Of a stretch of DNA of 64,000 nt, positions 524-53,620 are shown piece by piece. Numbering within the stretch: the stretch's first letter is position 1; the number at the start of each line of letters is the position of its first letter. The stretch is from contig NZ_CP116902.1 in the NCBI RefSeq assembly GCF_028471905.1, positions 1,586,501-1,650,500 of the forward strand, written 5' to 3'. The notes beneath the pieces are model-generated. The model was given only the letters and a program-made list of their open reading frames with translations. It was not told where the DNA came from and searched no databases. The position numbers and the translations under genes were made by a program. The stretch comes from Aneurinibacillus uraniidurans. GTDB lineage: Bacteria > Bacillota > Bacilli > Aneurinibacillales > Aneurinibacillaceae.

Positions 524-547
524 TCATGAATACCTCTCTAAAAGAAG

Positions 548-588
548 AGGCTGCCCCGTTGCCATCTTTCGGCTATGGGGACAGCTTC
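548..588. repeat. Solo copy of the GGCTGTCC-type hairpin (also possible terminator)
   Basis: An imperfect stem (AGGCTGCCCC against GGGGACAGCTTC) is followed by T-rich sequence, so it may terminate the upstream gene. The loop, read on the minus strand, resembles the CAGAACATGGCGA loop of the terminal hairpins of the composite repeats near 21-23.6 kb and 28.7-29.4 kb. It is therefore listed as a likely relic of that family. Confidence 0.55.
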
Positions 589-7524: not shown

Positions 7525-7567
7525 GGGGCTGTCCTAAACGCCAGAGCATGGCGAATAGAGCAGCCTC
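7525..7567. repeat. Solo GGCTGTCC-type hairpin
   Basis: GGGGCTGTCC and AGAGCAGCCTC frame a loop reading CCAGAGCATGGCGA. This loop closely matches the terminal hairpins of the composite palindromic repeats elsewhere in the window. It lies between convergent genes and may double as a weak terminator. Confidence 0.6.
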
Positions 7568-7584
7568 TTTGTGTATTCAAAAAA

Positions 7585-19446: not shown

Positions 19447-20964
19447 GTGACGTTAATAGACAATCTTGTGCGCAGTACGACTGATTATCCAGGACGAGTT
19501 GCATATGTGTATAATGGCGTTGAAACGACGTATGAAGAGCTGTATGAACAAGTCCATCATACGGCTTCCTATCTGGCGACAGCAGGCATCGGATCGGGAG
19601 ACCACGTAGCACTTTTACTCAGTAATTCGCCAGAATTTGTGATTGCCTATTATGGAATTTTGCTGTCCGGTGCGGCGGTTGTTCCGATTAATCCCTCGTA
19701 TACGGCACACGAATTGCAGTTTATTCTACACAACAGTGGTGCGCGGATGGCAATTGCTATGTCTGTACTTCTACCGGCCTTTGAAACAATGCGTCCGCAG
19801 CTTCCTGAATTACAGACGGTTGTATTGGCGGGTGTAGAAGAAACATCAGCACCGTGGACGGTACCGTTTCACAAAATGATAGCGTATACAAATTCGAGAT
19901 GGAAGGCTCCGGTTATCGACGGAGAGGATCGAGCGGTGATTTTGTATACGTCTGGTACGACCGGAACTCCGAAGGGAGCCATTCTTACGCATCGCAATAT
20001 GGCATCGAATGCGGATGCGATTTCGCAATACTTAGGTGTTTATACGAAAGATACGTTTGTGGCAGTGCTGCCGATGTTTCATGTTTTTTGCATGACGGTT
20101 TGTTTGAATGCACCGATTGCCAATGGCGCAAAGATACTCATTTTGCCGCGTTTTGGTCCGAAGCAGCTAATTGAGCTCATCGAAGAGCGACAGGCTACTA
20201 TCTTTGCAGGGGTGCCAGCGATGTACAATTTTATCATGCAGCAGCAGGATCTATCTCCGTCTGCACTGGCATCACTTCGTATTTGTGTGTCTGGCGGTGC
20301 CGCGATGCCGGTTGCGCTGCTTCATGAGTTTGAAAAGCGGTTTGATAAGGTAATATCGGAAGGGTATGGGTTGTCCGAAGCGGCTCCGGTTACCGCATTC
20401 AATCCCGTGGAAGGTGTGCGAAAACCGGGTTCCGTTGGTGTAGATATTCCGGGCGTTACAAATAAAGTGGTTGATGCAGAAGGAAGGGAGCTAGAACGGG
20501 GAGAAGTCGGAGAGTTGATCGTTAGGGGACCGAATGTGATGGTCGGATATCTGAATTTGCCAGAAGATACGGCGGTCGCTCTGCGTGATGGTTGGCTCTA
20601 CACGGGTGATATGGCATATATGGATGAGGATGGCTATGTATTCATTGTGGATCGCAAAAAAGATATGATTCTCGTTGGCGGTTATAATGTGTATCCTCGT
20701 GAAGTGGAGGAAGTCTTGTATATGCATCCGCTCGTTGTGGAAGCAGCGGTAATTGGGGTGCCTGATGAGAATTTTGGAGAACGGGTGCAGGCGTATGTAG
20801 TACGCAAGGATGAATCGTTGACAGAGAACGAGCTGTACGAACATTGCAGCCACGACCTGGCCCGCTATAAAGTTCCTAAGGATATTATTTTCATAGAAGA
20901 GCTTCCGAAGAATACAACAGGCAAAATTTTGCGTCGTTCCCTGAAAGACCGGGTTGTAAAGTAA
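19447..20964 (+). CDS. Long-chain fatty-acid-CoA ligase (LcfB-like)
   Basis: The 505 residues carry an adenylate-forming enzyme signature: AMP-binding loop ILYTSGTTGTPKGAILTH, motif GYGLSEAAPV, GWLYTGDMAYMDEDGYVFIVDRKKDMI and the C-terminal catalytic lysine region PKNTTGKILRR. It activates fatty acids to acyl-CoA, feeding the adjacent beta-oxidation operon. The start is GTG with GGAGGGAT upstream. It is separated from fadE by a terminator, so it is probably transcribed on its own. No FadR box was seen before it. Confidence 0.9.
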   Translation: MTLIDNLVRSTTDYPGRVAYVYNGVETTYEELYEQVHHTASYLATAGIGSGDHVALLLSNSPEFVIAYYGILLSGAAVVPINPSYTAHELQFILHNSGARMAIAMSVLLPAFETMRPQLPELQTVVLAGVEETSAPWTVPFHKMIAYTNSRWKAPVIDGEDRAVILYTSGTTGTPKGAILTHRNMASNADAISQYLGVYTKDTFVAVLPMFHVFCMTVCLNAPIANGAKILILPRFGPKQLIELIEERQATIFAGVPAMYNFIMQQQDLSPSALASLRICVSGGAAMPVALLHEFEKRFDKVISEGYGLSEAAPVTAFNPVEGVRKPGSVGVDIPGVTNKVVDAEGRELERGEVGELIVRGPNVMVGYLNLPEDTAVALRDGWLYTGDMAYMDEDGYVFIVDRKKDMILVGGYNVYPREVEEVLYMHPLVVEAAVIGVPDENFGERVQAYVVRKDESLTENELYEHCSHDLARYKVPKDIIFIEELPKNTTGKILRRSLKDRVVK

Positions 20965-20972
20965 ACAGAGGG

Positions 20973-21467
20973 AAGGCTGTCTCAAAAGCTGTAATATGGC
21001 GATTGAGGTAGCCTCTTTTTGTAGAATCGACAACGTTTCGGTTTACAAAAAGACTCTCATCGCCAAAATGATTTGCTCGGTACGCGGCTGGCTTTGCGCA
21101 AGCCATCTTCTTTATTTTTTACCTGCATAGCAACGCTCAGCCTCTTGATTTTGCTTGATGATGTTTACCAAGGTATGTTAGGAGCGGGATCGGGTGGGGC
21201 AACGGAACGCCTGTACGTGATTCCCCAGCGGAAGGGGCCGGACGAACGGGCTTTTGCCCACAATACTTCGATGCAAATACATCGTAGAAATCTTTTGTGG
21301 GCGAGTTCGGCTGGTACCTGGAGCGGACAGTCCCGACTTCTCTGTAAGCGTACCGAAGTGACGAGGTCCCACCCGATCCCGGCTCCTCTACCACACTTTG
21401 GAGAAAAACTTCATCAAGGAAAGAGGCTGTCCTGTTCGCCATGTTCTGACTTTTAGGACAGCCTCTT
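20973..21467 (+). repeat. Composite palindromic repeat, unit 1 (B palindrome absent)
   Basis: Order along the plus strand: terminal hairpin (20973-21014), a single ACAACGTTT at 21030-21038, a spacer (21039-21165), an A-type palindrome (21166-21402; arms GGAGCGGGATCGGGTGGG and CCCACCCGATCCCGGCTCC), then an inverted terminal hairpin (21422-21467). The spacer and A palindrome are near-identical, in reverse, to 22969-23330. Open frames across it on the minus strand are by-products of the palindrome. The outer hairpins may also terminate the ligase gene and the gene at 21477. Confidence 0.8.
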
Positions 21468-21476
21468 TCTTCTTTT

Positions 21477-21698
21477 TTATAATTCAGCAAAGCGAGCCAG
21501 GATTTCTTCATGTGCCGGATAGTTGTCGGCAGTGAAGTGTTTCTCTGCCCACGCCATCATTTCGTGGCGGCCAACAAACACAAATGTGTCTTCGCCCCAC
21601 TCCGTCGAAATTTCACGTACGGTAATTTTAGAACCTTCCGTCTCAGCTGTAATCATGTTCCAGTTATCTTCTTTATAGATGATATGTTTTTTAGCCAC
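21477..21698 (-). CDS. Small acidic hypothetical protein (73 aa)
   Basis: The start chosen is the GTG at 21698, with GGAAAGGG about ten bases upstream; a TTG at 21722 is the longer alternative. The sequence (KKHIIYKEDNWNMITAETEGSKITVREISTEWGEDTFVFVGRHEMMAWAEKHF...) looks like a genuine small alpha/beta protein. No family is recognised and there is no signal peptide. The gene ends next to the terminal hairpin of a repeat. Confidence 0.55.
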   Translation of the reverse strand: MAKKHIIYKEDNWNMITAETEGSKITVREISTEWGEDTFVFVGRHEMMAWAEKHFTADNYPAHEEILARFAEL

Positions 21699-21814
21699 CG
21701 TATTCAAACCCTTTCCATTCAAATAATCCGTCTTTAAGTCTAGCGATTGACGCGTTGTTTTGCAACTGATACGCTACTAATACTGACTATTTTGACGTAA
21801 AAAGGTGACAACAT

Positions 21815-22471
21815 ATGCTAACAAACGCTCAAATACGCCGGATTCTCGATACATTTGCCGAGATGTTTCCGGATGCGCATTGTGAATTAACTCATTCTAA
21901 TCCGTTCGAACTGACGATTGCTGTGCTTTTATCTGCTCAATGTACGGATGCGCTTGTAAACAAAGTAACCCCGCATCTGTTTGCGAAATACAAAAAGCCA
22001 CAAGATTATTTGAACGTTCCGCTTGAAGAGCTAGAGCAGGATATTCGAAGCATTGGCTTATACCGCAATAAAGCGAAAAACATTCAGAAGCTCGCTCGCT
22101 TGCTGTTGGATGAATACGATGGAGAAATCCCCAAGACGCATGCGGATCTCGTTCGTCTGCCGGGTGTCGGGCGCAAGACGGCGAATGTCGTCGTATCAAC
22201 CGCATTCGGGGTTCCGGCAATCGCGGTCGATACACACGTGGAGCGTGTCTCAAAGCGTCTGGGCATCGCGCGCTGGAAGGATACGCCCATTCAAGTGGAG
22301 GAGACGCTTATGAAGCGGGTGCCGCAGGATGAATGGAGCCTGACACACCATCGGATGATCTTTTTCGGACGCTATCATTGCAAGGCGCAAAATCCCCAGT
22401 GCCAGGTATGTCCACTGCTGGACCTATGCCGGGAAGGGAAGAAAAGAATGAAAGGGAAAAGTGAAAAATAA
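21815..22471 (+). CDS. nth: Endonuclease III (DNA glycosylase/AP lyase)
   Basis: The 218 residues are full length. The helix-hairpin-helix is LPGVGRKTANVVVS, with catalytic Asp in AIAVDTHVERVSKRLG and catalytic Lys in the preceding helix region. The C-terminal iron-sulphur cysteines are C-X6-C-X2-C-X5-C (CKAQNPQCQVCPLLDLC). It removes oxidised pyrimidines in base excision repair. It is not in the dnaD-nth arrangement of B. subtilis. Here it lies alone between two inverted composite repeats. Confidence 0.93.
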   Translation: MLTNAQIRRILDTFAEMFPDAHCELTHSNPFELTIAVLLSAQCTDALVNKVTPHLFAKYKKPQDYLNVPLEELEQDIRSIGLYRNKAKNIQKLARLLLDEYDGEIPKTHADLVRLPGVGRKTANVVVSTAFGVPAIAVDTHVERVSKRLGIARWKDTPIQVEETLMKRVPQDEWSLTHHRMIFFGRYHCKAQNPQCQVCPLLDLCREGKKRMKGKSEK

Positions 22472-22482
22472 TTAAAAATAGA

Positions 22483-22711
22483 TTGACAATTTAACAGTGG
22501 TGCTATAGTATAAACGTATAAACACGTACTGTTCCATGAAAGATCGCTCTTTCATCTCCAACATGTACGAGACTATTGATTAACAACGTTGTAACTCATC
22601 ACAGCTAACTGAGGAATCGACTGACCCGGGTATGCCAGCCGGGAGAACGAAGCGAGACCGGCCAGTTATATCGTAGCATGATATATGCTCCTGATATAAC
22701 TGGCCTTTTTG
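22483..22711 (+). promoter_or_regulatory. Promoter and structured leader with terminator upstream of the zinc-ribbon gene (attenuator or riboswitch candidate)
   Basis: TTGACA (22483-22488) and TAGTAT (22506-22511, spacing 17) form a promoter. The transcript would then contain a CGTAC/GTACG stem enclosing ATGAAAGA/TCTTTCAT, a CCCGG/CCGGG hairpin (22625-22643), and a 13-bp terminator stem GGCCAGTTATATC/GATATAACTGGCC followed by T5 (22660-22710). GCCGG at 22638-22642 can pair with CCGGC at 22658-22662, inside the 5' terminator arm, giving an alternative fold. No known riboswitch class is matched. CTGACCCGGGTATGCCAGC recalls the 3' half of a TPP element, but the 5' half is missing. Confidence 0.5.
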
Positions 22712-22743
22712 TTGTCCATGAGTTGAATTTTAAGGAGGAATGA

Positions 22744-22899
22744 ATGATGGGCTACAAAGACGAATGCATTTCTTGTGGAAAAGAGTTGGCATCTTGGGAA
22801 AGAAATCGAGCAGAGTGTCTCGATTGTCGCGAGATTGCCTGTGAAACGTATAGCGATGATGCTGATCATGAGGGCATCACGGAAGATTACGCCTCGTAG
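22744..22899 (+). CDS. Small zinc-ribbon-like protein (51 aa)
   Basis: AAGGAGG precedes ATG ATG (22744 or 22747). The product is acidic and has two Cys pairs, CISCGKEL and CLDCREIAC, the spacing of a rubredoxin-like knuckle or zinc ribbon. Function is unknown. It follows a 200-base structured leader with a terminator, which suggests expression controlled by attenuation. The stop abuts the terminal hairpin of composite repeat unit 2. Confidence 0.6.
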   Translation: MMGYKDECISCGKELASWERNRAECLDCREIACETYSDDADHEGITEDYAS

Positions 22900-22903
22900 T
22901 TAC

Positions 22904-23624
22904 GAGAGGCTGTCTCGAACGCTGTAGCATAGCGAAGGAGGCAGCCTCTTCTTTTTGGTGTGGTTTCGCCAAAGTGTAGTGGAGGAGCCGGGATCGGGCG
23001 GGGCCTCGTCACTTCGGTACGCTTGCGAAGAAGTTTGGACTGTCCGCTCCAGGTACCAGATGAACTCGCCCACAAAAGAGAGCCCACGATGTATTCGCAT
23101 CGAAGGATTGTGGGCAAAAGCCCGTTCACCTGCTCCCTTCCGCTAGGGATCGCGTACAGGCGTTCCGTTGCCCCGCCCGATCCCGCTCCTAGCACACTTT
23201 GGGTAAACATCATCAAGCAATATCAAGAGGCTGAGCGTTGCTATGCAGATAAAAAATAAAAAAGATGGCTTGCGCAAAGCCAGTCACGTCCCGAGCAAAT
23301 CATTCTGGCGACGAGAGTCTTTCTGTAAACCGAAACGTTGTGCGGGGAGTGGGAGAAGGGAGGAGCACGAGCGCCTGTACGTGCCTACGCAGCGGAGGGA
23401 GAACGGCGAGCGAGATTTTGCCCGCAATTCTTCGGTGAACGAGCATCGTAGGCAGTTCTTTGCGGGCACGTTCGCCGGGCTCCCGGAGCGGACAGTTTCC
23501 ACTTCCCTGCAAGCGTACCGAAACGAACGGCTCCTCCCTTCTCCCACTCCCTCTCACCAAACGTTGTCGATTCTACAAAGAAGACCGTCTCGCTCGCCAT
23601 GTTCGGTTTTTTAGGACAGCTTCT
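22904..23624 (-). repeat. Composite palindromic repeat, unit 2 (complete, reverse orientation)
   Basis: This is the reverse complement of unit 1 with one extra module. In plus-strand order: terminal hairpin (22904-22950), A-type palindrome (22969-23202), spacer (23203-23332), B-type palindrome (23333-23567) bounded by AAACGTTGT direct repeats (23333-23341 and 23559-23567), and a terminal hairpin (23581-23624). A and B palindromes share inner motifs (CGCCTGTACGT, TTTGCCCRCAA, GAGCGGACAGT, AAGCGTACCGAA) but have different outer stems. No credible protein is encoded across the 840 bases between genes. Confidence 0.8.
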
Positions 23625-23651
23625 GCATGTATGATCCAATACGCGCAGCAT

Positions 23652-23680
23652 TTGGAACTTGACACAGGAATGTGTACAAT
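23652..23680 (+). promoter_or_regulatory. Putative sigma-A promoter of pepF
   Basis: TTGGAA (23652-23657) and TACAAT (23675-23680) are spaced by 17 bases, 60 bases before pepF. Confidence 0.45.
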
Positions 23681-23740
23681 AAAAGAGTATCCAAACTACA
23701 GGAAGTGGAAGGAGGGAGCGGCCTTGTGCCGCGCTCATAA

Positions 23741-25561
23741 ATGGCTGAAACGACTCAAAAAACACTCCCAAAACGGTCAGAAGTCAAGCAGGAAAATAAA
23801 TGGAAGCTTGAAGATATGTTTTCATCAGATGCGGCATGGGAAGACGAATACAAGCAGGTGCAGCAGCATATTGAGGAGATCGGTCACTACAAAGGCAAAC
23901 TTGCTCAATCACCTGCTATATTGGCGGATTGCATGAAAACATACGCGAAGCTCGGCCTTGCGATGGAGCGAGTATATGTATATGCCCGCATGCGCCGGGA
24001 TGAAGATAATACGAATACGAAATATCAAGGCATGACAGATCGTGCTGGTTCGTTAAACGTTAGCGTGTCCAGTGCGACATCGTTCCTTGTTCCCGAGATC
24101 CTGGCGATGCCGGAAGAAAAACTCGAAAGCTACATTGCAGATCCTGCACTTGCATCGCATACGTTCTACTTAAAAGAAATCAAGCGTCAGAAAGCGCATG
24201 TCCTAAGTGAGATTGAAGAAAAAATCATCGCCCAGGCAGGTGAGCTGGCGCAGGCACCGCAGACGATTTTTGGGATGATCAATAATGCGGATATGGCCTT
24301 TCCAACGATTAAGGATGAGCATGGGAACGATGTGCAAATTACGCATGGCCGCTACATTCAATTGATGGAAAGCCAGGATCGCCGCGTGCGCCAGGAAGCT
24401 TTCAAGGCGGTGTATGATACGTATGGTAAGCAGAAAAATACGATTGCGGCTACCCTGAATGCAAGCGTCAAAAAAGACGCATTTTACGCCCGCATTCGTA
24501 AATATCCATCGGCACTGGCGGCAGCGCTTGATGATGATAACATCTCAACTGATGTGTACACGAATCTGATTCAGGCTGTGCGCGATAACTTGCCAGCGAT
24601 GCACCGATATGTGTCACTTCGTAAAAAACTGCTCAGTGTCGATGAGTTGCATATGTATGATTTGTATGTACCGATGGTCGGTGAAGTGAAAATGGACATT
24701 CCGTACGCAGAGGCGATCCGTCTTGTCAAAGAAGGGCTTAAGCCGCTTGGTAGTGAGTATGGGCATGTGCTCGATGAAGCATTCACATCTGGCTGGGTTG
24801 ACGTATACGAGAACGAAGGAAAAACAAGCGGCGCGTATTCCTGGGGGGCATATGGCACTCATCCATATGTACTGATGAACTACCATGATAACGTGAATAA
24901 CTTGTTCACACTGGCACATGAGATGGGCCATGCGATGCACAGCTATTACAGTGACAAAACACAGCCATACCTAGACGCACAGTACAAAATTTTCGTGGCG
25001 GAAGTAGCTTCCACGCTAAATGAATCGCTCCTTATGGATTACATGCTTAAAAATACGAAGGACCCACGTCAAAAAATGTACCTGCTCAATTATTACCTCG
25101 AACAGTTCCGCGGCACTGTGTATCGCCAGACGATGTTTGCGGAATTCGAGAAGCTGACACATGAGAAAGTGGAAGCAGGCCAGCCCCTTACGGCAGAGAC
25201 ACTGTGCAGCATGTACTATGATCTGAACAAAGACTACTATGGTCCAGACATGGTGATCGACGAAGACATTAAAATGGAATGGGCCCGCATTCCGCATTTC
25301 TATAACGAATTTTACGTCTATCAGTATGCGACCGGATTCTCCGCAGCTACAGCCCTATCCCAGCAAATCCTCAGCGAAGGCGAACCTGCGGTAAAACGCT
25401 ACTTGAACTTCTTGTCAAGCGGCGGCTCCGACTATCCAATCGAGCTCCTACGCAAAGCAGGGGTCGACATGGCATCCCCTGAGCCAGTCGTCGAAGGACT
25501 AAAAGTATTCGCTCGTCTGCTCGATGAAATGGAGAAGCTTGCAGAAGAGGTCGGCAAGTAA
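23741..25561 (+). CDS. pepF: Oligoendopeptidase F
   Basis: At 606 residues this is full length for the M3B PepF family. The zinc-binding motif HEMGHAMHSYYSD (HExxH) and the downstream Glu in FVAEVASTLNE are present, and the N-terminus LPKRSEVKQENKWKLEDMF is typical. It is a cytoplasmic metallopeptidase cleaving short peptides. The start is constrained by an in-frame stop directly upstream (TAAATG). The only good ribosome site, GGAGGG, is 24 bases from the ATG, with a GTG-CCG-CGC-TCA-TAA mini-frame between them. A terminator follows at 25577. Confidence 0.92.
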   Translation: MAETTQKTLPKRSEVKQENKWKLEDMFSSDAAWEDEYKQVQQHIEEIGHYKGKLAQSPAILADCMKTYAKLGLAMERVYVYARMRRDEDNTNTKYQGMTDRAGSLNVSVSSATSFLVPEILAMPEEKLESYIADPALASHTFYLKEIKRQKAHVLSEIEEKIIAQAGELAQAPQTIFGMINNADMAFPTIKDEHGNDVQITHGRYIQLMESQDRRVRQEAFKAVYDTYGKQKNTIAATLNASVKKDAFYARIRKYPSALAAALDDDNISTDVYTNLIQAVRDNLPAMHRYVSLRKKLLSVDELHMYDLYVPMVGEVKMDIPYAEAIRLVKEGLKPLGSEYGHVLDEAFTSGWVDVYENEGKTSGAYSWGAYGTHPYVLMNYHDNVNNLFTLAHEMGHAMHSYYSDKTQPYLDAQYKIFVAEVASTLNESLLMDYMLKNTKDPRQKMYLLNYYLEQFRGTVYRQTMFAEFEKLTHEKVEAGQPLTAETLCSMYYDLNKDYYGPDMVIDEDIKMEWARIPHFYNEFYVYQYATGFSAATALSQQILSEGEPAVKRYLNFLSSGGSDYPIELLRKAGVDMASPEPVVEGLKVFARLLDEMEKLAEEVGK

Positions 25562-25576
25562 AAAGTATCATGCTCC

Positions 25577-25614
25577 AAGGAGTTGCCCCGTATGTTAGTG
25601 GGGCAGCTCTTTTT
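25577..25614 (+). terminator. Rho-independent terminator after pepF
   Basis: GAGTTGCCCC and GTGGGGCAGCTC form a stem followed by eight T. The stem resembles the GGCTGTCC hairpins but lacks their conserved loop. Confidence 0.8.
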
Positions 25615-25683
25615 TTGGAATTCAAAAATATAGAAAAACTTGTTGGGCGAAGCTGTACAAAACTTGTGCTTGAGCGCGGACTG

Positions 25684-25913
25684 CCCAACTGTCGGCAGGA
25701 GCGGAGAAGGAAGATGCTGTGGAACGCTTTTACGCGCTACCCAGCGGAAGGGAGCAGGCATACGGGCCTTTGCCCATGACTCTTCTGCGCACAAACATCT
25801 TGTCCTTTATGGGCGAGTATGCCTGAACCCTAGAGCGGACAGTCCCCGCTTCTCCGCAGAGCGTAACCAAGTGACAAAGCGCCTTCCTTCGCCGCTCCTC
25901 CACTACACGTTGG
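25684..25913 (+). repeat. Diverged solitary palindromic repeat (A/B family)
   Basis: The outer arms CCCAAC...GCAGGAGCGG and CCGCTCCTCC...GTTGGG enclose the family's inner motifs in plus orientation: CCCAGCGGAAGGG, CCTTTGCCC, ATGGGCGAGT, AGAGCGGACAGTCCCCGCTTCTC and AGCGTAACCAAGTGAC. It is the most diverged full-length copy and has no spacer or partner palindrome. The 550-bp gap from 25562 to 26111 contains nothing else apart from the pepF terminator. Confidence 0.7.
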
Positions 25914-26111
25914 GTATCTCCATCCCTCTAGCGCATTTTCTACAGCCCTTGCCCCCAACTTTTTTCCTCCAAAACACCAATCTAGAAAAATAGTTCTAAT
26001 GTCGGAAAACTATTCTCGAACTTGTGCGTCTAAGTATAATGTTCAGCTTGTCGTTCCATTGGAAGAAGAAGTCGGAAGCAACATAGACAAACAAGGGAGC
26101 GAGATAGACAG

Positions 26112-27758
26112 ATGAAAAAACATAATTGGCTGTTTCTGGCATTGATTATGGTCATTGGCCTGATCATGCCGGGAGCAGTAAAAGCTGAGGTGCCAATGAC
26201 GCTGGTTGTCAACGGAAGCGTTGTAACACCAGACGTACCACCACAGTTTGTTGAAGAACGTACATTTGTGCCATTGTATTTTGCGGGACAAGCGTACGGA
26301 GCAGATGTTACATGGGATGAGTCGAGCCATACGGTTACCGTTAATGACCGTAAAGGCAAGATCATTACGATGAATCCAGGTTTTCGCACGGCGTATATCA
26401 ATGGTACGAAAGTGATACTGGATCAGGCGCCGCTTGTAATTAACAACCGGACCATGATACCGTTGCGCCAAATTGGCGAATGGCTGGGAGCGACAGTCGG
26501 TTGGGACCAGGCATCAAGCACCGTTATCGTTAACAGTAAGCAGTCGCTTGCTATTAATGGTCGTACTTTGACAGCACCTGTATACCAGCTGCCGTACGGT
26601 CGTTTCGTATCCATTAATGAAATGGCCAAGCCGCTTGGGTATACCGTAAGTACCGGGAACGGGAAAGTGGTTCTCGAACAAGGAACAGAGAAGTACACCA
26701 TTGCACAGGCTGATGCCTCAAATACGAACGGATGGCGCTTGATTGATGGACAGTATGCGCTTACCCCAGAGTTTCTTGCACAAGTAATCGGAGCGAAGGC
26801 AAGCTGGAACGAAGCAGGAACGGCAGGCACATTGGACAAGCTGCAGCGCATTACCGGATTTTCTGTGACAGATAATGGGGTACGGGTAGAAACAGAAGGG
26901 AAGATGACATTCAGTCACTTCTATCTAGATAGCCCGGATCGGATCGTTATTGATTTTAACCACGCGCGTATAGATACATCGATGCCTGCTCCAGCGGTGA
27001 GCGGCAAGGTGAAGGCGGTGCGCTTTAGCCAGTACAGCACAGCTCCAGATCGAGTGCGTGTCGTAGTTGAGATGACGAAGCATTTTGGATACGAGGTATC
27101 GGCAGCGGACGGAGCAACGAATGTACGTATTACGGATAACGTTATCGCTCCTATAGTGCCAACACCAGTACCGACACCAACACCAACACCAAAGCCGACT
27201 CCGCCGACAACAAATAAGGGTACATTCACCATTGTTTTAGATGCGGGACACGGTGGAAAAGACACTGGTGCAATTGGAACGGCGAATAATGCGGAGAAAT
27301 CGCTTGTTCTAGCTGTTGCGAAGCGGATGAAGCCGCTGCTTGAGCAGAATAAAAATTTCAAAGTGATTATGACACGGGAAGGCGATACATACCCAACGCT
27401 TGACGATCGAGTTAACCTGGCGAATAGCGTAAATGCGGATTTATTTATGGCGATTCATGCGAATTCTGGCCCGGCGAGTGCTCATGGTACAGAGACGTAT
27501 TATACATCGGCTCGTAGTAAAGAGCTTGCCTCCATCGTACATCGCCACCTAATTGCAGCGACTGGCTTTACGGATCGGGGTGTAAAGACAGCTAACTACT
27601 ACGTAACAAAAAACACAAAAATGCCGTCAACGTTGATCGAAATCGGATTTTTGACTAATACATCTGATAACAAGCAAATGCTGGACCCAGATTTCCAGCA
27701 GCGTGTTGCAGAAGCGATGGTAGCAGCGATTACCGAGTATTATAATTTGCACCACTAG
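26112..27758 (+). CDS. Secreted N-acetylmuramoyl-L-alanine amidase with copper-amine-oxidase-N and AMIN domains
   Basis: The 548 residues contain a signal peptide (1-25), a copper amine oxidase N-terminal-like domain (about 30-145), a second related segment (150-235), an AMIN domain (about 245-345, FSHFYLDSPDRIVIDFNHARI), a Pro/Thr linker, and an Amidase_3 domain (375-545). The active-site motifs are LDAGHGGKDTG, NNAEKSLVLA, MAIHANSG and LIEIGFLTN. It is a wall hydrolase held at the envelope by its AMIN module. GGGAGCGAG lies 11 bases before the ATG. Its own terminator follows. Confidence 0.9.
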   Translation: MKKHNWLFLALIMVIGLIMPGAVKAEVPMTLVVNGSVVTPDVPPQFVEERTFVPLYFAGQAYGADVTWDESSHTVTVNDRKGKIITMNPGFRTAYINGTKVILDQAPLVINNRTMIPLRQIGEWLGATVGWDQASSTVIVNSKQSLAINGRTLTAPVYQLPYGRFVSINEMAKPLGYTVSTGNGKVVLEQGTEKYTIAQADASNTNGWRLIDGQYALTPEFLAQVIGAKASWNEAGTAGTLDKLQRITGFSVTDNGVRVETEGKMTFSHFYLDSPDRIVIDFNHARIDTSMPAPAVSGKVKAVRFSQYSTAPDRVRVVVEMTKHFGYEVSAADGATNVRITDNVIAPIVPTPVPTPTPTPKPTPPTTNKGTFTIVLDAGHGGKDTGAIGTANNAEKSLVLAVAKRMKPLLEQNKNFKVIMTREGDTYPTLDDRVNLANSVNADLFMAIHANSGPASAHGTETYYTSARSKELASIVHRHLIAATGFTDRGVKTANYYVTKNTKMPSTLIEIGFLTNTSDNKQMLDPDFQQRVAEAMVAAITEYYNLHH

Positions 27759-27766
27759 TGTAAAAA

Positions 27767-27809
27767 AGAAAGGCTCTTCTGAAAATAACAAGGAGCCTTT
27801 CTTTTTTTT
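27767..27809 (+). terminator. Rho-independent terminator after the amidase
   Basis: GAAAGGCTC and GAGCCTTTC form a perfect stem followed by eight T. Confidence 0.85.
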
Positions 27810-27865
27810 GCAAAGTTGTCTAAGATAAGTGGAAGCAAAACCATATCACGGAGGGATCTACATAT

Positions 27866-28732
27866 ATGACCTGGCAGCGTTTGCGCCCATTTGTATTTAT
27901 TACAATTGGTGGATTTTTGTATTCGATTGCTGTAAATTTATTTTTTGTTAGCAATAAGCTTGCGCAAGGGGGCGTCACCGGGATTTCGCTTCTATTGCAC
28001 TACAAATTCAATACCCCGGTCGGATTGTTTATTATCCTGTTAAATATTCCAATCTTTATTCTCGGATATATCATACTTGGTAAAGGATTTTTGTTGCGCA
28101 GCGCTTATGGGATGCTCGCGGTATCGGTTCTGATCGATGTGACAGCTTCCTGGAAAGTTCCTCCGCTTGAAAACGTCATCCTTGCTCCGCTATATGGCGG
28201 CATTATTGCCGGAATTGGGATGGGGTTTGTGTTCCGTGTGGGTGGTACATTAGGCGGTGGCGATATTATTGCACGCGTGTTGCAGCACAAGTTCCGCAAC
28301 ATTGATCTCGGGAAGTTTTTGTTTGGGATTGATTTTACGATTATTGCCGCTTCGGCGCTCGTTGTGACGGTAGAGAAAGCGATGCTTACAATTGTAGCGG
28401 TGTACGTTACCGCTCGGGTCGTCGATCTCATTTTGTCCGGCTCCCAGAAGCAGCGCAGTGTCATTATTATTTCTAGCAAACCGGATGAGATTACCGCGCA
28501 GATTCACAAGCATTTAGTGCGTGGTGTAACGATGCTGCACTCGATGGGAGGCTATTCACGTCGAGAAGGAGAAGTGCTGCTTGTCGTCGTTCAGCTGTAC
28601 GAAATGGATCGGCTGCGCCGCATTGTCGGTGAGATAGACGAGCGTGCCTTTATTTTGGCGTTCGAGGCGAAAGAAGTACAGGGAGAAGGATTTAGCTTTC
28701 CGTCTCCTGCTAGACAGCATCTTGAACAATAG
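27866..28732 (+). CDS. YitT-family membrane protein (DUF161-DUF2179)
   Basis: The 288 residues contain five to six membrane segments in the first 190 residues (ITIGGFLYSIAVNLFFVSNKLAQGGVTGISLLL is the family hallmark) and a cytoplasmic DUF2179 domain (about 195-280, HKHLVRGVTMLHSMGGYSRREGEVLLVVV). The family is widespread in Firmicutes in several paralogues; transport is suspected but not shown. CGGAGGG precedes the ATG. Composite repeat unit 3 follows. Confidence 0.88.
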   Translation: MTWQRLRPFVFITIGGFLYSIAVNLFFVSNKLAQGGVTGISLLLHYKFNTPVGLFIILLNIPIFILGYIILGKGFLLRSAYGMLAVSVLIDVTASWKVPPLENVILAPLYGGIIAGIGMGFVFRVGGTLGGGDIIARVLQHKFRNIDLGKFLFGIDFTIIAASALVVTVEKAMLTIVAVYVTARVVDLILSGSQKQRSVIIISSKPDEITAQIHKHLVRGVTMLHSMGGYSRREGEVLLVVVQLYEMDRLRRIVGEIDERAFILAFEAKEVQGEGFSFPSPARQHLEQ

Positions 28733-28747
28733 CCTTCACACAAAAAA

Positions 28748-29436
28748 TGAGGCTGTCCCGAAGTCAGAACATGGCGAGTGGGGCAGCCTTGTTTTGTGAA
28801 ATCGAAAGTGTGGGGGAGGGAGTGGGAGAAGGGAGGAGCCGTTTGCTTTGGTACGCTTGCAGGGAAGTGATGACTGTCCGCTCCGAGAGCTCGACGAACG
28901 TGCCCGCAAAGAAAAGCCTACGATGTTGATTCTATAGAAGGATTGCGGGCAAAGGCCCGTTCGTCGTTCTCCCTTCGCTGAGTAGGCGCGTACAGGCGCT
29001 CTCTTGTTCCTCCCTTCTCCCACTCCCCGCACAACGTTTCGGTTTACAAAAAAATATGCCATGCCAGAACGGATTGGCTTGATCACTACTGACTTCTCGA
29101 AAGATAGCTTCTTGATATTGTTTGATGGTGTTTAGCCAAAGAGTGCTAGGAGCGGGATCGGGCGAGGGAACGGAACGCCTGTACGTGACTTCCTAGCGGA
29201 AGGGGCCAGGCGAACGGGCTTTTGCCCACAATATTTCCATGTACATACATCGTAGGTACCTTTTGTGGGCGAGTTCGTCTGGCACCTGGAGCGGACAGCC
29301 TCTACTCCTTAGCGAGCGTACCGAAGTGACGAGGCCTCGCCCGATCCCGATCCTCCACCACCACACTTTGGTGAAACTCTCCATCAAGAAAAACAGGCTA
29401 TCCTGTCCGCCATGTTCTGGCTTTTAGGATAGCCTT
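28748..29436 (+). repeat. Composite palindromic repeat, unit 3 (complete, forward orientation)
   Basis: Order: terminal hairpin (28748-28790, loop CAGAACATGGCGA), B-type palindrome (28804-29039, arms GAGTGGGAGAAGGGAGGAGC and CCTCCCTTCTCCCACTC), spacer (29040-29136, ending in TTGATATTGTTTGATGGTGTTTA like the other units), A-type palindrome (29137-29371, GGAGCGGGATCGGGCG and CGCCCGATCCCGATCC) and inverted terminal hairpin (29392-29436, loop CGCCATGTTCTGG). It fills nearly the whole 720-bp gap between yitT-like and PAP2 genes. No gene is seen inside. Confidence 0.8.
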
Positions 29437-29452
29437 CTTATGTGGAAATCTT

Positions 29453-30109
29453 TTAATTCGTGCTTTTCTTTTCTTCCCCCTGTACCGATTGAGCTTGTCG
29501 AAGAGGTACAGGCGGGATATTGTCGGGAGCTGGGATTACAATGAAGCGCCGAACAATCGGGATATGCGGTGCAATCCGGTAGGCTAGTCTACGAATCGGC
29601 AGGCGCATGGTTATCATGCCGGCCATAATGCCGATCACCGCTCCTGCTAGTACATCAAGCGGATAATGAACGCCTACATAGATGCGTGAATATGACATGA
29701 CAAGTGCACATGGCAGCGCCCACCAGATTGTGCGCGGGAATAGCCGGTATAGAACGTACATCGAAACAAAAGAAGAGACCGCATGACCGGATGGGAAGGA
29801 ATGAGAGACTGGCAGCTCAACAAGCTGGCGAACTGTATCCTCCACAAGCGGTGGACGAGGTCTTGAAATAAGCGGTTTAAAAATATTTTCGAGCACGCCA
29901 CCGATCCCGATCCCGACAAGCAAGGTCACACCTGGACGAAGGCCGAGTCTTTTGTGCTGCAAAAGCAGGACAAAGGCGACGAGGAACCAGAAAATTCCTT
30001 TGTCACTAATGCGAGTAGCGAGTATCATAAATGGGTCGAGAGCAGGACTATATAGTTTGGTGTTCAACCAGTGAAAAAGCCATCTATCAAACGAAAGTAA
30101 TGAGTCCAT
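29453..30109 (-). CDS. PAP2-family membrane phosphatase (undecaprenyl-diphosphatase-like)
   Basis: The 218 residues have about five to six membrane segments. All three PAP2 motifs are intact: KPLISRPRP, the PSGHAVSS loop, and SRIYVGVHYPLDVLAG (the arginine and two histidines of the active site). Such BcrC/PgpB-like enzymes dephosphorylate lipid pyrophosphates, often undecaprenyl diphosphate. AGAGGTGAAA lies ten bases before the ATG. It is divergent from the gene at 30202. Confidence 0.87.
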   Translation of the reverse strand: MDSLLSFDRWLFHWLNTKLYSPALDPFMILATRISDKGIFWFLVAFVLLLQHKRLGLRPGVTLLVGIGIGGVLENIFKPLISRPRPPLVEDTVRQLVELPVSHSFPSGHAVSSFVSMYVLYRLFPRTIWWALPCALVMSYSRIYVGVHYPLDVLAGAVIGIMAGMITMRLPIRRLAYRIAPHIPIVRRFIVIPAPDNIPPVPLRQAQSVQGEEKKSTN

Positions 30110-53523: not shown

Positions 53524-53620
53524 TGGGAGGAGAGAAGAGAGGAGCAAGAGAACGTCTGTATGTTTGTTCCCTGGTGGAAGGAGAGTACTTGCCCACAACT
53601 CTTCCGTGCCCCTCCTCACA
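53524..53620 (+). repeat. Truncated copy of the palindromic repeat
   Basis: GGGAGGAGAGAAGAGAGGAGCAAGAGAACGTCTGTATGT...CCTGGTGGAAGG...TTGCCCACAACTCTTCCGTGCCCCTCCTCAC carries the left half of the family (B-like outer stem, CGCCTGTACGT-like and TTGCCCACAA motifs). Its right half is missing. It abuts the 3' end of the tetR gene and overlaps its last codon. Quoted pieces are discontinuous segments of 53524-53620. Confidence 0.65.

What the first reader, a model, noticed from the sequence alone, without database searches (positions are those of the whole stretch)
20973..29436. A composite palindromic repeat family with modular order: hairpin, B palindrome, spacer, A palindrome, inverted hairpin
Three units (20973-21467, 22904-23624 reversed, 28748-29436) share the same module order and inverted terminal hairpins of about 45 bp, like a non-autonomous element of about 690 bp. 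Further pieces exist: a solitary palindrome (25684-25913), a truncated one (53524-53620) and solo hairpins (548, 7525). None encodes a credible protein. I do not recognise it as a described repeat.
Basis: seen in the sequence. Interest (0 to 1): 0.8.

Follow-up and report, generated by a model that had tools for sequence, protein, structure and literature searches.

The report
Terminator-targeting mini-transposons sharing one fold
The repeats are copies of a small mobile DNA element that carries no genes, settles at the stop signals at the ends of bacterial genes, and carries a folded module that recurs, undescribed as far as I could find, in many Bacillus-class bacteria.

Summary
The repeat family is real and mobile. 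The genome (genus Aneurinibacillus) holds 91 copies of one 160-nt folded core, "P"; a congener holds at least 150. "A", "B" and the solitary palindrome are forms of P. P occurs in 45 of 398 sampled Bacilli genomes, and in 0 of 397 others in a phylum-wide sample. Across 69 copies, 30 of 33 base pairs change on both sides while still pairing, and AGCGGA / AGCGGACAG motifs are nearly invariant.

P sits in non-autonomous elements that often lie at intrinsic terminators. In two related Bacilli, 11 of 12 P elements are flanked by duplicated, locus-specific sequence, in 7 a complete hairpin. They share ends and target habit with a resident IS1182-family insertion sequence. The window's ~690-bp composite has IS1182-type hairpin ends and no target duplication. 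In 3 of 8 informative two-genome comparisons it stands where the other genome has an ordinary terminator, resembling reports for IS1272. The solitary 25645-25955 copy has ISL3-type ends.

Verdict: a new variant of a known kind (MITE). Why P's fold is conserved is open. No intact transposase for the composite was found in this genome.

The parts
20973..21467 (+). Composite unit 1 (B palindrome absent): hairpin - scar - spacer - A - hairpin, between convergent genes
   Evidence: the sister genome has an unrelated terminator in this place
20974..21020 (+). Unit 1 left terminal hairpin with T-run (IS1182-type end)
21016..21051 (+). Junction TTTTTGTAGAATCGACAACGTTTCGGTTTACAAAAA where palindrome B is missing
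21204..21362 (+). P core (A copy) of unit 1
   Evidence: E 6.7e-41
21423..21465 (-). Unit 1 right terminal hairpin
22904..23624 (-). Composite unit 2, reversed; present at the same place in sister genome G005
22906..22950 (+). Unit 2 terminal hairpin (A side)
23008..23166 (-). P core (A copy) of unit 2
   Evidence: E 1e-40
23368..23527 (+). P core (B copy) of unit 2
   Evidence: E 7.5e-42
23578..23623 (-). Unit 2 terminal hairpin (B side)
25645..25955 (+). Solitary P element (311 bp) with ISL3-type terminal inverted repeats; imperfect 8-bp direct repeats AACTTGTT / AACTTTTT outside
   Evidence: shared with G005
25721..25875 (+). P core of the solitary element
   Evidence: E 3.2e-34
28748..29436 (+). 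Composite unit 3: hairpin - B - spacer - A - hairpin; interior inverted in G005 while the outer hairpins stay in place
28749..28795 (+). Unit 3 left terminal hairpin
28842..29002 (-). P core (B copy) of unit 3
   Evidence: E 8e-42
29052..29138 (+). Spacer between B and A of unit 3 (approximate limits); its 3' part resembles the ISL3-type end, by eye
29172..29330 (+). P core (A copy) of unit 3
   Evidence: E 6.7e-41
29389..29435 (-). Unit 3 right terminal hairpin
547..588 (+). Solo terminal-type hairpin (terminator-like, no P)
7525..7570 (+). Solo terminal-type hairpin; sister genome G005 has a unit at this place
53524..53620 (+). Truncated P-like fragment (by eye; below the model's threshold)
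   Evidence: not reported

Best explanation
The composites are non-autonomous, MITE-like elements. Their outer ends are IS1182-type terminal repeats that double as inward-facing terminator-like hairpins, and their interior carries two inverted copies of the folded module P. An IS1182-family transposase acting in trans probably moved them. Such transposases choose stem-loops by shape rather than by sequence, so the elements landed on intrinsic terminators. At the clearest Aneurinibacillus sites they stand where an ordinary terminator would be, and their own end hairpins probably do that job. In other Bacilli, related P elements duplicate the target hairpin on both sides. P also travels in elements with ISL3-type ends, as in the solitary window copy. 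Shown here: the copies, the P fold and its covariation, presence/absence sites, flanking hairpin duplications, and a resident IS1182 with similar ends and the same target habit in G204. Inferred: mobilisation of the composite by an IS1182 transposase now lost from this genome, replacement of the target hairpin, and termination by the end hairpins. Not explained: why P's fold is conserved.
For: Copies: 20 near full-length in G000; 91 P cores in G000 and >=150 in G005. Composite ends: GAGGCTGTCYCAAAAGC plus hairpin plus T-run, against GAGGCTGTCTCAAAAGG / GAGGGTGTCCCAAAAG with inward hairpins at both ends of a G006 element whose ORF is NF033551 IS1182 transposase. Inward terminator-like hairpins: left 42, right 38, both 27 of 56 P-bearing units or fragments of G000 and G005, against 30 of 168 control windows. 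Gene context: G000 21 convergent, 20 codirectional, 1 divergent of 42; G005 8, 4, 1 and 1 undetermined of 14; background in G000 32, 107 and 34 of 173 gene pairs. Sister-genome sites: at E1, E2 and E3 G005 has an unrelated terminator where G000 has the unit, right-truncated in E3. No target duplication: 1 of 20 units has 3 bp. P elements flanked by a direct duplication: G204/G240 11 of 12 (>=10 bp; 7 shared words fold as a hairpin) against 0 of 132 mismatched pairs; G054 14 of 17 (>=12 bp; 5 of the 17 lie in two tandem arrays) against 100 of 3400 random pairs. In G204, 14 of 21 PF13751 matches lie 1.0-1.5 kb from an exact TGTAGACAAAG. P elements of G204/G240 have such ends with 0-3 mismatches left and 0-4 right. 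Of 13 IS copies examined, 8 have >=10-bp flanking duplications (7 hairpins), against 2 of 156. Solitary type: ISL3-like ends in relatives, some with TSDs, and a decayed ISL3 copy with such ends in G000. [quoted passage not shown] TnSha1/IS1272 inserts into hairpins, several confirmed as terminators, with partial deletion (PMC4923244, passages).
Against: No intact IS1182 was found in G000 (one fragment, no such ends seen) and no PF13751 match in G005, so the composite's mover is inferred from a congener. Of 8 informative sister-genome sites only 3 show a terminator in the empty place. One unit sits beside an intact terminator (F2), one empty site has none (F8), and three face a solo hairpin (F5, F6, F9). 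Nine further unit sites were degenerate or rearranged. Terminators differ between species even without units, so replacement could be later turnover. Copies are old (about 20% divergent), so TSDs may have eroded. In 30 loci of other lineages, terminators near P are only about twice background (34 of 60 sides against 33 of 120 windows), and most show no duplication. Five G006/G004 IS1182-type copies, by eye, show no clear palindromic target in their flanks. The IS1272 paper's abstract also lists non-IR targets.
Confidence: 0.72

Rival explanations
1. P is a functional non-coding RNA (cis or trans) and the transposon ends are only its vehicle. The fold is kept because the RNA does something for host or element.
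For: Strong covariation across lineages with different ends together with nearly invariant letters (AGCGGA, AGCGGACAG, CTTC). If the module acted only as duplex DNA, the paired changes would not be needed.
Against: No transcript evidence could be obtained. The most invariant letters lie partly in helix 3, which has little covariation support. P lies on both strands and in both orders, mostly at gene 3' ends. A hairpin acting as single-stranded DNA or cruciform, or correction between palindrome arms, would leave similar covariation.
Confidence: 0.28
2. They are host-useful bidirectional terminators or mRNA 3'-end stabilisers, spread by recombination and kept by selection, like REP/BIME arrays; mobility is secondary.
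For: Position at gene ends and between convergent genes; inward hairpins with T-runs; units shared by two species at the same sites.
Against: Presence/absence between sister species, flanking duplications in other genera and a resident IS with similar ends point to transposition. Many copies are truncated or decayed.
Confidence: 0.2
3. The composites are ISL3-type elements throughout; the end hairpins are merely host terminators they sit beside.
For: Solitary P elements in Aneurinibacillus have ISL3-like ends, some with ~8-bp TSDs. Some composite copies end at other hairpins (L028, L061); at L061 that hairpin is also in the other genome.
Against: In the other copies the end hairpins are homologous between units and inverted at the two ends. 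They match an IS1182 end. No 8-bp TSD lies outside the 20 units tested.
Confidence: 0.12

Closest known systems
IS1272 / TnSha1 (IS1182 family) of staphylococci, PMC5678879 and PMC4923244 (passages read)
   Same: IR/stem-loop targets of any sequence; in PMC4923244 several targets are confirmed terminators; target hairpin replaced or partly deleted; no TSD, as at the composite's best sites. [quoted passage not shown]
   Different: Those encode a transposase or carry genes. Here the elements are gene-less and carry the folded P module. IS1272's own end letters were not compared here.
IS1182-family IS of G204 (L291) and G006 (L166), NF033551
   Same: Same terminal sequence type as the P elements of G204/G240/G054, and as the composite, respectively; in G204 the same hairpin-sized target duplication.
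   Different: No P module at E<=0.01 in the 17 loci holding them that were scanned.
ISL3-family IS (decayed copy at G000 2565934-2567426; PF01610)
   Same: Ends GGCTCTACACCAAAGTCTGTTCTTGAC / GGCTTTACACCAAACTCTGTTCTTGAC, like those of solitary P elements.
   Different: The composite units do not have these ends on the outside; this copy shows no clear TSD itself.
REP/BIME, bcr1 and other palindromic bacterial repeats (recalled; bcr1 named in search listings and a reference list)
   Same: Multicopy, intergenic, palindromic, gene-end location.
   Different: Length and terminator-hairpin duplication, as far as recalled; no comparison with their sequences was made.

Membership tests
MITE / non-autonomous IS derivative | Short multicopy element with terminal inverted repeats and no transposase gene | tested here: met
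MITE / non-autonomous IS derivative | Ends match an autonomous IS | tested here: met
   G204/G240 P elements and IS1182 share TGTAGACAAAG-like ends; the composite consensus matches a congener's IS1182 end in 16 of 17 letters
MITE / non-autonomous IS derivative | Autonomous partner in the same genome | tested here: not met
   for the composite: only an IS1182 fragment in G000, none in G005; met for G204
IS1182-type (IS1272-like) element | Target is a stem-loop or terminator | tested here: met
   met for P elements of G204/G240 (11 of 12 with a duplication, 7 of them a full hairpin) and G054 (14 of 17); for the composite only 3 of 8 informative sites
IS1182-type (IS1272-like) element | Target hairpin replaced, no TSD (composite) | tested here: inconclusive
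   no TSD; E1-E3 fit replacement, F2 and F8 do not
IS1182-type (IS1272-like) element | Moved by an IS1182 transposase | not testable with these tools
   needs a transposition assay
ISL3-type MITE (solitary P) | ISL3-like ends | tested here: met
   L184, L190, L196 by pattern; L013, L069 and window S by eye
ISL3-type MITE (solitary P) | ~8-bp TSD (8 bp is recalled for ISL3) | tested here: inconclusive
   direct repeats at L069 (ATATTTAT), L184 (TATATATT) and L190 (A-run), imperfect at window S; none clear at L196 and L013
Rfam families | Match to any of 4227 models | tested here: not met
   0 at gathering score, 0 at E<=1 in 20900-29500
REP/BIME with RAYT transposase | 20-40 bp GTAG/CGTC-tagged palindromes with a TnpA_REP gene | not tested
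   no RAYT search made; P elements are ~230-310 bp
Group IIC intron remnant | Insertion just 3' of a terminator, ribozyme domains, no target duplication (recalled) | tested here: not met
   duplications in other genera and no Rfam intron match in the window

The most novel reading that the evidence does not exclude
P is a conserved structured RNA (or single-stranded DNA) module of unknown function, spread over the class Bacilli by riding on at least two unrelated transposase systems and docking at gene terminators. It would be a portable regulatory or anti-readthrough RNA, or a cofactor that lets a transposase see stem-loops.
Probability: 0.28. Interest if true: 0.88.

Novelty: new variant of a known kind. 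Interest (0 to 1): 0.7.

Why it matters
Mobile elements that find their target by DNA shape are rare and poorly understood. Here are about thirty insertions at unrelated sites, largely terminators, in G204, G240 and G054, with the target duplicated; in G204 a resident IS1182 does the same. At the clearest Aneurinibacillus sites the hairpin appears to be replaced instead. The duplication and replacement outcomes proposed for IS1272 can therefore be compared on natural insertions. Separately, P is a strongly covarying fold with nearly invariant motifs that Rfam lacks and that is found in 17 of 145 sampled Bacilli genera. It poses a concrete question: which molecule reads this fold?

Tried and rejected
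Rfam for a known RNA: nothing. Unit or G054 P element on plasmids, unit on phages: no match. Pattern scan of named genomes: 14 loci; the 4 of A. danicus and A. terranovensis are plausible, and the other 10 lie in other groups, were not examined and are taken as chance. A flanking-dyad test of 20 units gave a weak excess (5.95 against 5.09 +- 0.28) that rests much on one locus. An autonomous IS with TGTAGACAAAG ends was not found in G054: 18 of 20 loci fetched there hold P-like sequence; the other two (L274, L282) have an end but no P by blastn or model and were not followed. Protein coding in the units: six ORFs, no credible Pfam match. Alignment A1 included a wrongly cut outgroup row (L013), so it was not used for counts; A2 replaced it (33 of 96 core copies, chosen for diversity). 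Of 20 regions, five in G240 hold P, one a weak match, and the seven of G204 none; they were not analysed further. L227 was not used. Sister loci L138, L144, L145 and L256 gave no syntenic match above my cut-off, L250 only one flank, and L254/L033 was not examined. Literature: searches; passages or outline. No description of this family was found there; ISfinder was not available.
Full report
WHAT IS THERE. The three units, the solitary palindrome and the solo hairpins are at the stated places. A covariance model of the inner 160 nt finds six copies of one core in the window: 21204-21362 +, 23008-23166 -, 23368-23527 +, 25721-25875 +, 28842-29002 -, 29172-29330 +. So A, B and the solitary palindrome are versions of one module, here called P, and in a full unit the two P copies are inverted relative to each other. 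Unit 1 lacks B; the short junction ATCGACAACGTTTCGGTTTAC stands in its place, also at L037 and L047. Unit 3 as one strand folds at -365.2 kcal/mol against -236.2 +- 7.8 for 20 shuffles. Six ORFs overlapping the units or the solitary copy gave no credible Pfam match.

GENOME AND RELATIVES. The window is G000:C1:1586501-1650500 of a 3.85-Mb one-contig genome. Contig lengths identify G003 as A. danicus and G008 as A. terranovensis, so the genus is Aneurinibacillus. Unit 3 finds 20 near full-length copies in G000, many in G005 (same genus), and short matches in G003, G004, G006 and G008 (6 of 41 genomes with a match, G000 included). By model R1, G000 has 91 P cores, G005 at least 150 (the number scored was capped at 150), G007 22, G008 13, G006 6 and G003 2; 6 of 15 genomes of the order match.

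P ACROSS BACILLI. R1 (33 sequences, 33 pairs) hits 45 of 398 genomes drawn from the class, 17 of 145 genera. In a phylum-wide sample of 398 genomes only G000 itself is hit. Both scans used Infernal's stricter filters and scored at most 7 candidates a genome. On 69 matches from 59 held loci, 94.9% of cells pair (62.3% when 3' letters are shuffled, 33.8-47.2% when slid). 30 of 33 pairs have changes on both sides, against 27.4 +- 1.1 in shuffles, a measure that nearly saturates; the cells with double change, 689 against 209 +- 13, are the clearer signal. This alignment is fitted to the model, which favours the structure. A2, aligned without a structure model, gives 21 of 33 pairs and 105 cells against 32 +- 8, though its structure was derived from it. 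The motifs C..AGCGgA and G.AGCGGACAg...CTTC..GC are the most constant letters. They are partly unpaired and partly in helix 3, the one helix with little covariation. Palindromes can be corrected between their arms, so covariation alone does not prove an RNA; the near-invariant letters on one strand are the further argument that a folded strand is read.

TARGETING OF TERMINATORS. In G204 and G240 (one genus of family f23), 11 of 12 P elements have at least 10 bp in direct duplication on both sides, different at each locus; in 7 the shared word itself folds as a hairpin, for example AGGCGTTCCCCGCCGGGAACGCCGC (L235). None of 132 mismatched flank pairs reach 10 bp. In G054, 14 of 17 near-full elements show at least 12 bp, against 100 of 3400 random pairs; five of the 17 lie in two tandem arrays, which also raise that background. 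TGTAGACAAAG occurs 32, 13 and 63 times in G204, G240 and G054, against 4, 3 and 1 for the reversed pattern. The ends of the 12 P elements match it with 0-3 mismatches on the left and 0-4 on the right. In G204, 14 of 21 PF13751 matches lie 1.0-1.5 kb from an exact copy of it. The ORF of one such element scores 491.5 bits against NF033551 IS1182 (cut-off 270). Of 13 copies examined, 8 are flanked by duplications of at least 10 bp (7 of them hairpins), against 2 of 156 mismatched pairs. The P elements of G204 and G240 are therefore best read as MITEs of an IS1182-family element that targets terminator hairpins; those of G054 have similar ends, but no intact IS1182 was found there (only split, partial PF13751 matches at one place). 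No P core is found in the IS loci scanned.

THE COMPOSITE. The consensus of its outer ends, GAGGCTGTCYCAAAAGC followed by a complementary arm and a T-run facing inward, matches in 16 of 17 letters one IS1182 end of congener G006 and in 15 of 17 the other. The G006 element has such a hairpin at both ends, and its ORF is NF033551 at 463.9 bits. In G000 only an IS1182 fragment was found, in G005 nothing. Of 56 P-bearing units or fragments in the fetched G000 and G005 loci, 42 have an inward terminator-like hairpin on the left, 38 on the right and 27 on both, against 30 of 168 control windows. In G000, 21 of 42 units lie between convergent genes, 20 between codirectional and 1 between divergent genes; in G005, 8, 4 and 1 of 14, one undetermined. 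The background in G000 is 32 convergent, 107 codirectional and 34 divergent of 173 gene pairs. Gene calls were made by a simple longest-ORF rule.

SISTER-GENOME SITES. I compared 17 unit sites that differ between G000 and G005; sites with a unit in both genomes are not in this count. E1, E2 and E3: G005 has a short unrelated terminator (for example GGACAGGGCGCCCTGTCCTTT) where G000 has the unit; the E3 unit is truncated on its right. F2: the G005 unit stands beside a terminator kept in both. F8: no terminator in the empty site. F5, F6 and F9: G000 has a solo hairpin where G005 has a unit. The other nine (E4-E7, F1, F3, F4, F7, F10) are degenerate or rearranged; F1 and F3 are clear deletion remnants, and in E6 a host hairpin kept in both genomes borders the G005 unit. 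Unit 2, unit 3 and the solitary element are shared with G005, but the interior of unit 3 is inverted there while the outer hairpins keep their place. At the unit 1 site four other genomes (G001, G002, G004, G006) hold no unit: three have an ordinary terminator, G001 another MITE-like stretch. At the unit 3 site the same four hold no unit. Terminators differ between species anyway, so 'replacement' is likely but not proven. Units have no TSD (1 of 20 with 3 bp).

SOLITARY TYPE. In G003, G006 and G008, P lies in elements (306-311 bp for three in G006) with ends such as GGCTCTACAYCAAACTCTGTGCTTGAC. Direct repeats flank L069 (ATATTTAT), L184 (TATATATT) and L190 (an A-run); L196 and L013 show none clear. 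A decayed ISL3 element with such ends lies in G000 (PF01610). The window's solitary copy, 25645-25955, has the same length and similar ends, with AACTTGTT / AACTTTTT outside. So P rides on two kinds of ends.

MECHANISM. Passages of PMC5678879 describe IS1272 (IS1182 family) inserting into stem-loops of any sequence, replacing them, with no TSD; its abstract also mentions non-IR targets, and its model predicts a second route that duplicates the whole stem-loop. Passages of PMC4923244 describe TnSha1/IS1272 entering hairpins, several confirmed as terminators, with partial deletion. The best composite sites fit the first outcome, the G204/G240/G054 elements the second. What P itself does is open: a fold needed for transposition, or a passenger RNA.

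LIMITS. There were no transcripts, no ISfinder and no assay. In 30 loci of further lineages, terminators near P are enriched only about twofold (34 of 60 sides against 33 of 120 windows), and their movers are unknown.

Noticed in passing
L278 (G054:C1:655200-658800), L283: Tandem arrays of P elements separated by copies of the same hairpin-bearing stretch (spacing about 353 and 364 bp), as if the duplicated hairpin was hit again or recombined.
   Followed up: partly
L069 (G003, A. danicus); perhaps L063: P element with a foreign stretch of roughly 200 bp in the apical loop, leaving both flanks of the fold recognisable (by eye).
   Followed up: no
L131 (G001), orthologous site of unit 1: A different MITE-like stretch with one ISL3-like end (rc GGGTCTACACCAAGCTCTGTGCTTG) occupies the intergenic place that holds unit 1 in G000: possibly independent insertions at one site.
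   Followed up: no
L128 (G006), orthologous site of unit 3, and L066: Another repeated element (GTAGCGTGGTTGGAAGTAGG...) in G006 intergenic regions, unrelated by eye to P.
   Followed up: no
L126:8254-9126 (G005): A B-like P fragment and further sequence with what looks like an ORF lie directly upstream of the solitary element in G005, absent from the window (by eye).
   Followed up: no
L134, L143: Next to two units the two sister genomes carry different gene-sized stretches (not identified): units may mark recombination points.
   Followed up: no
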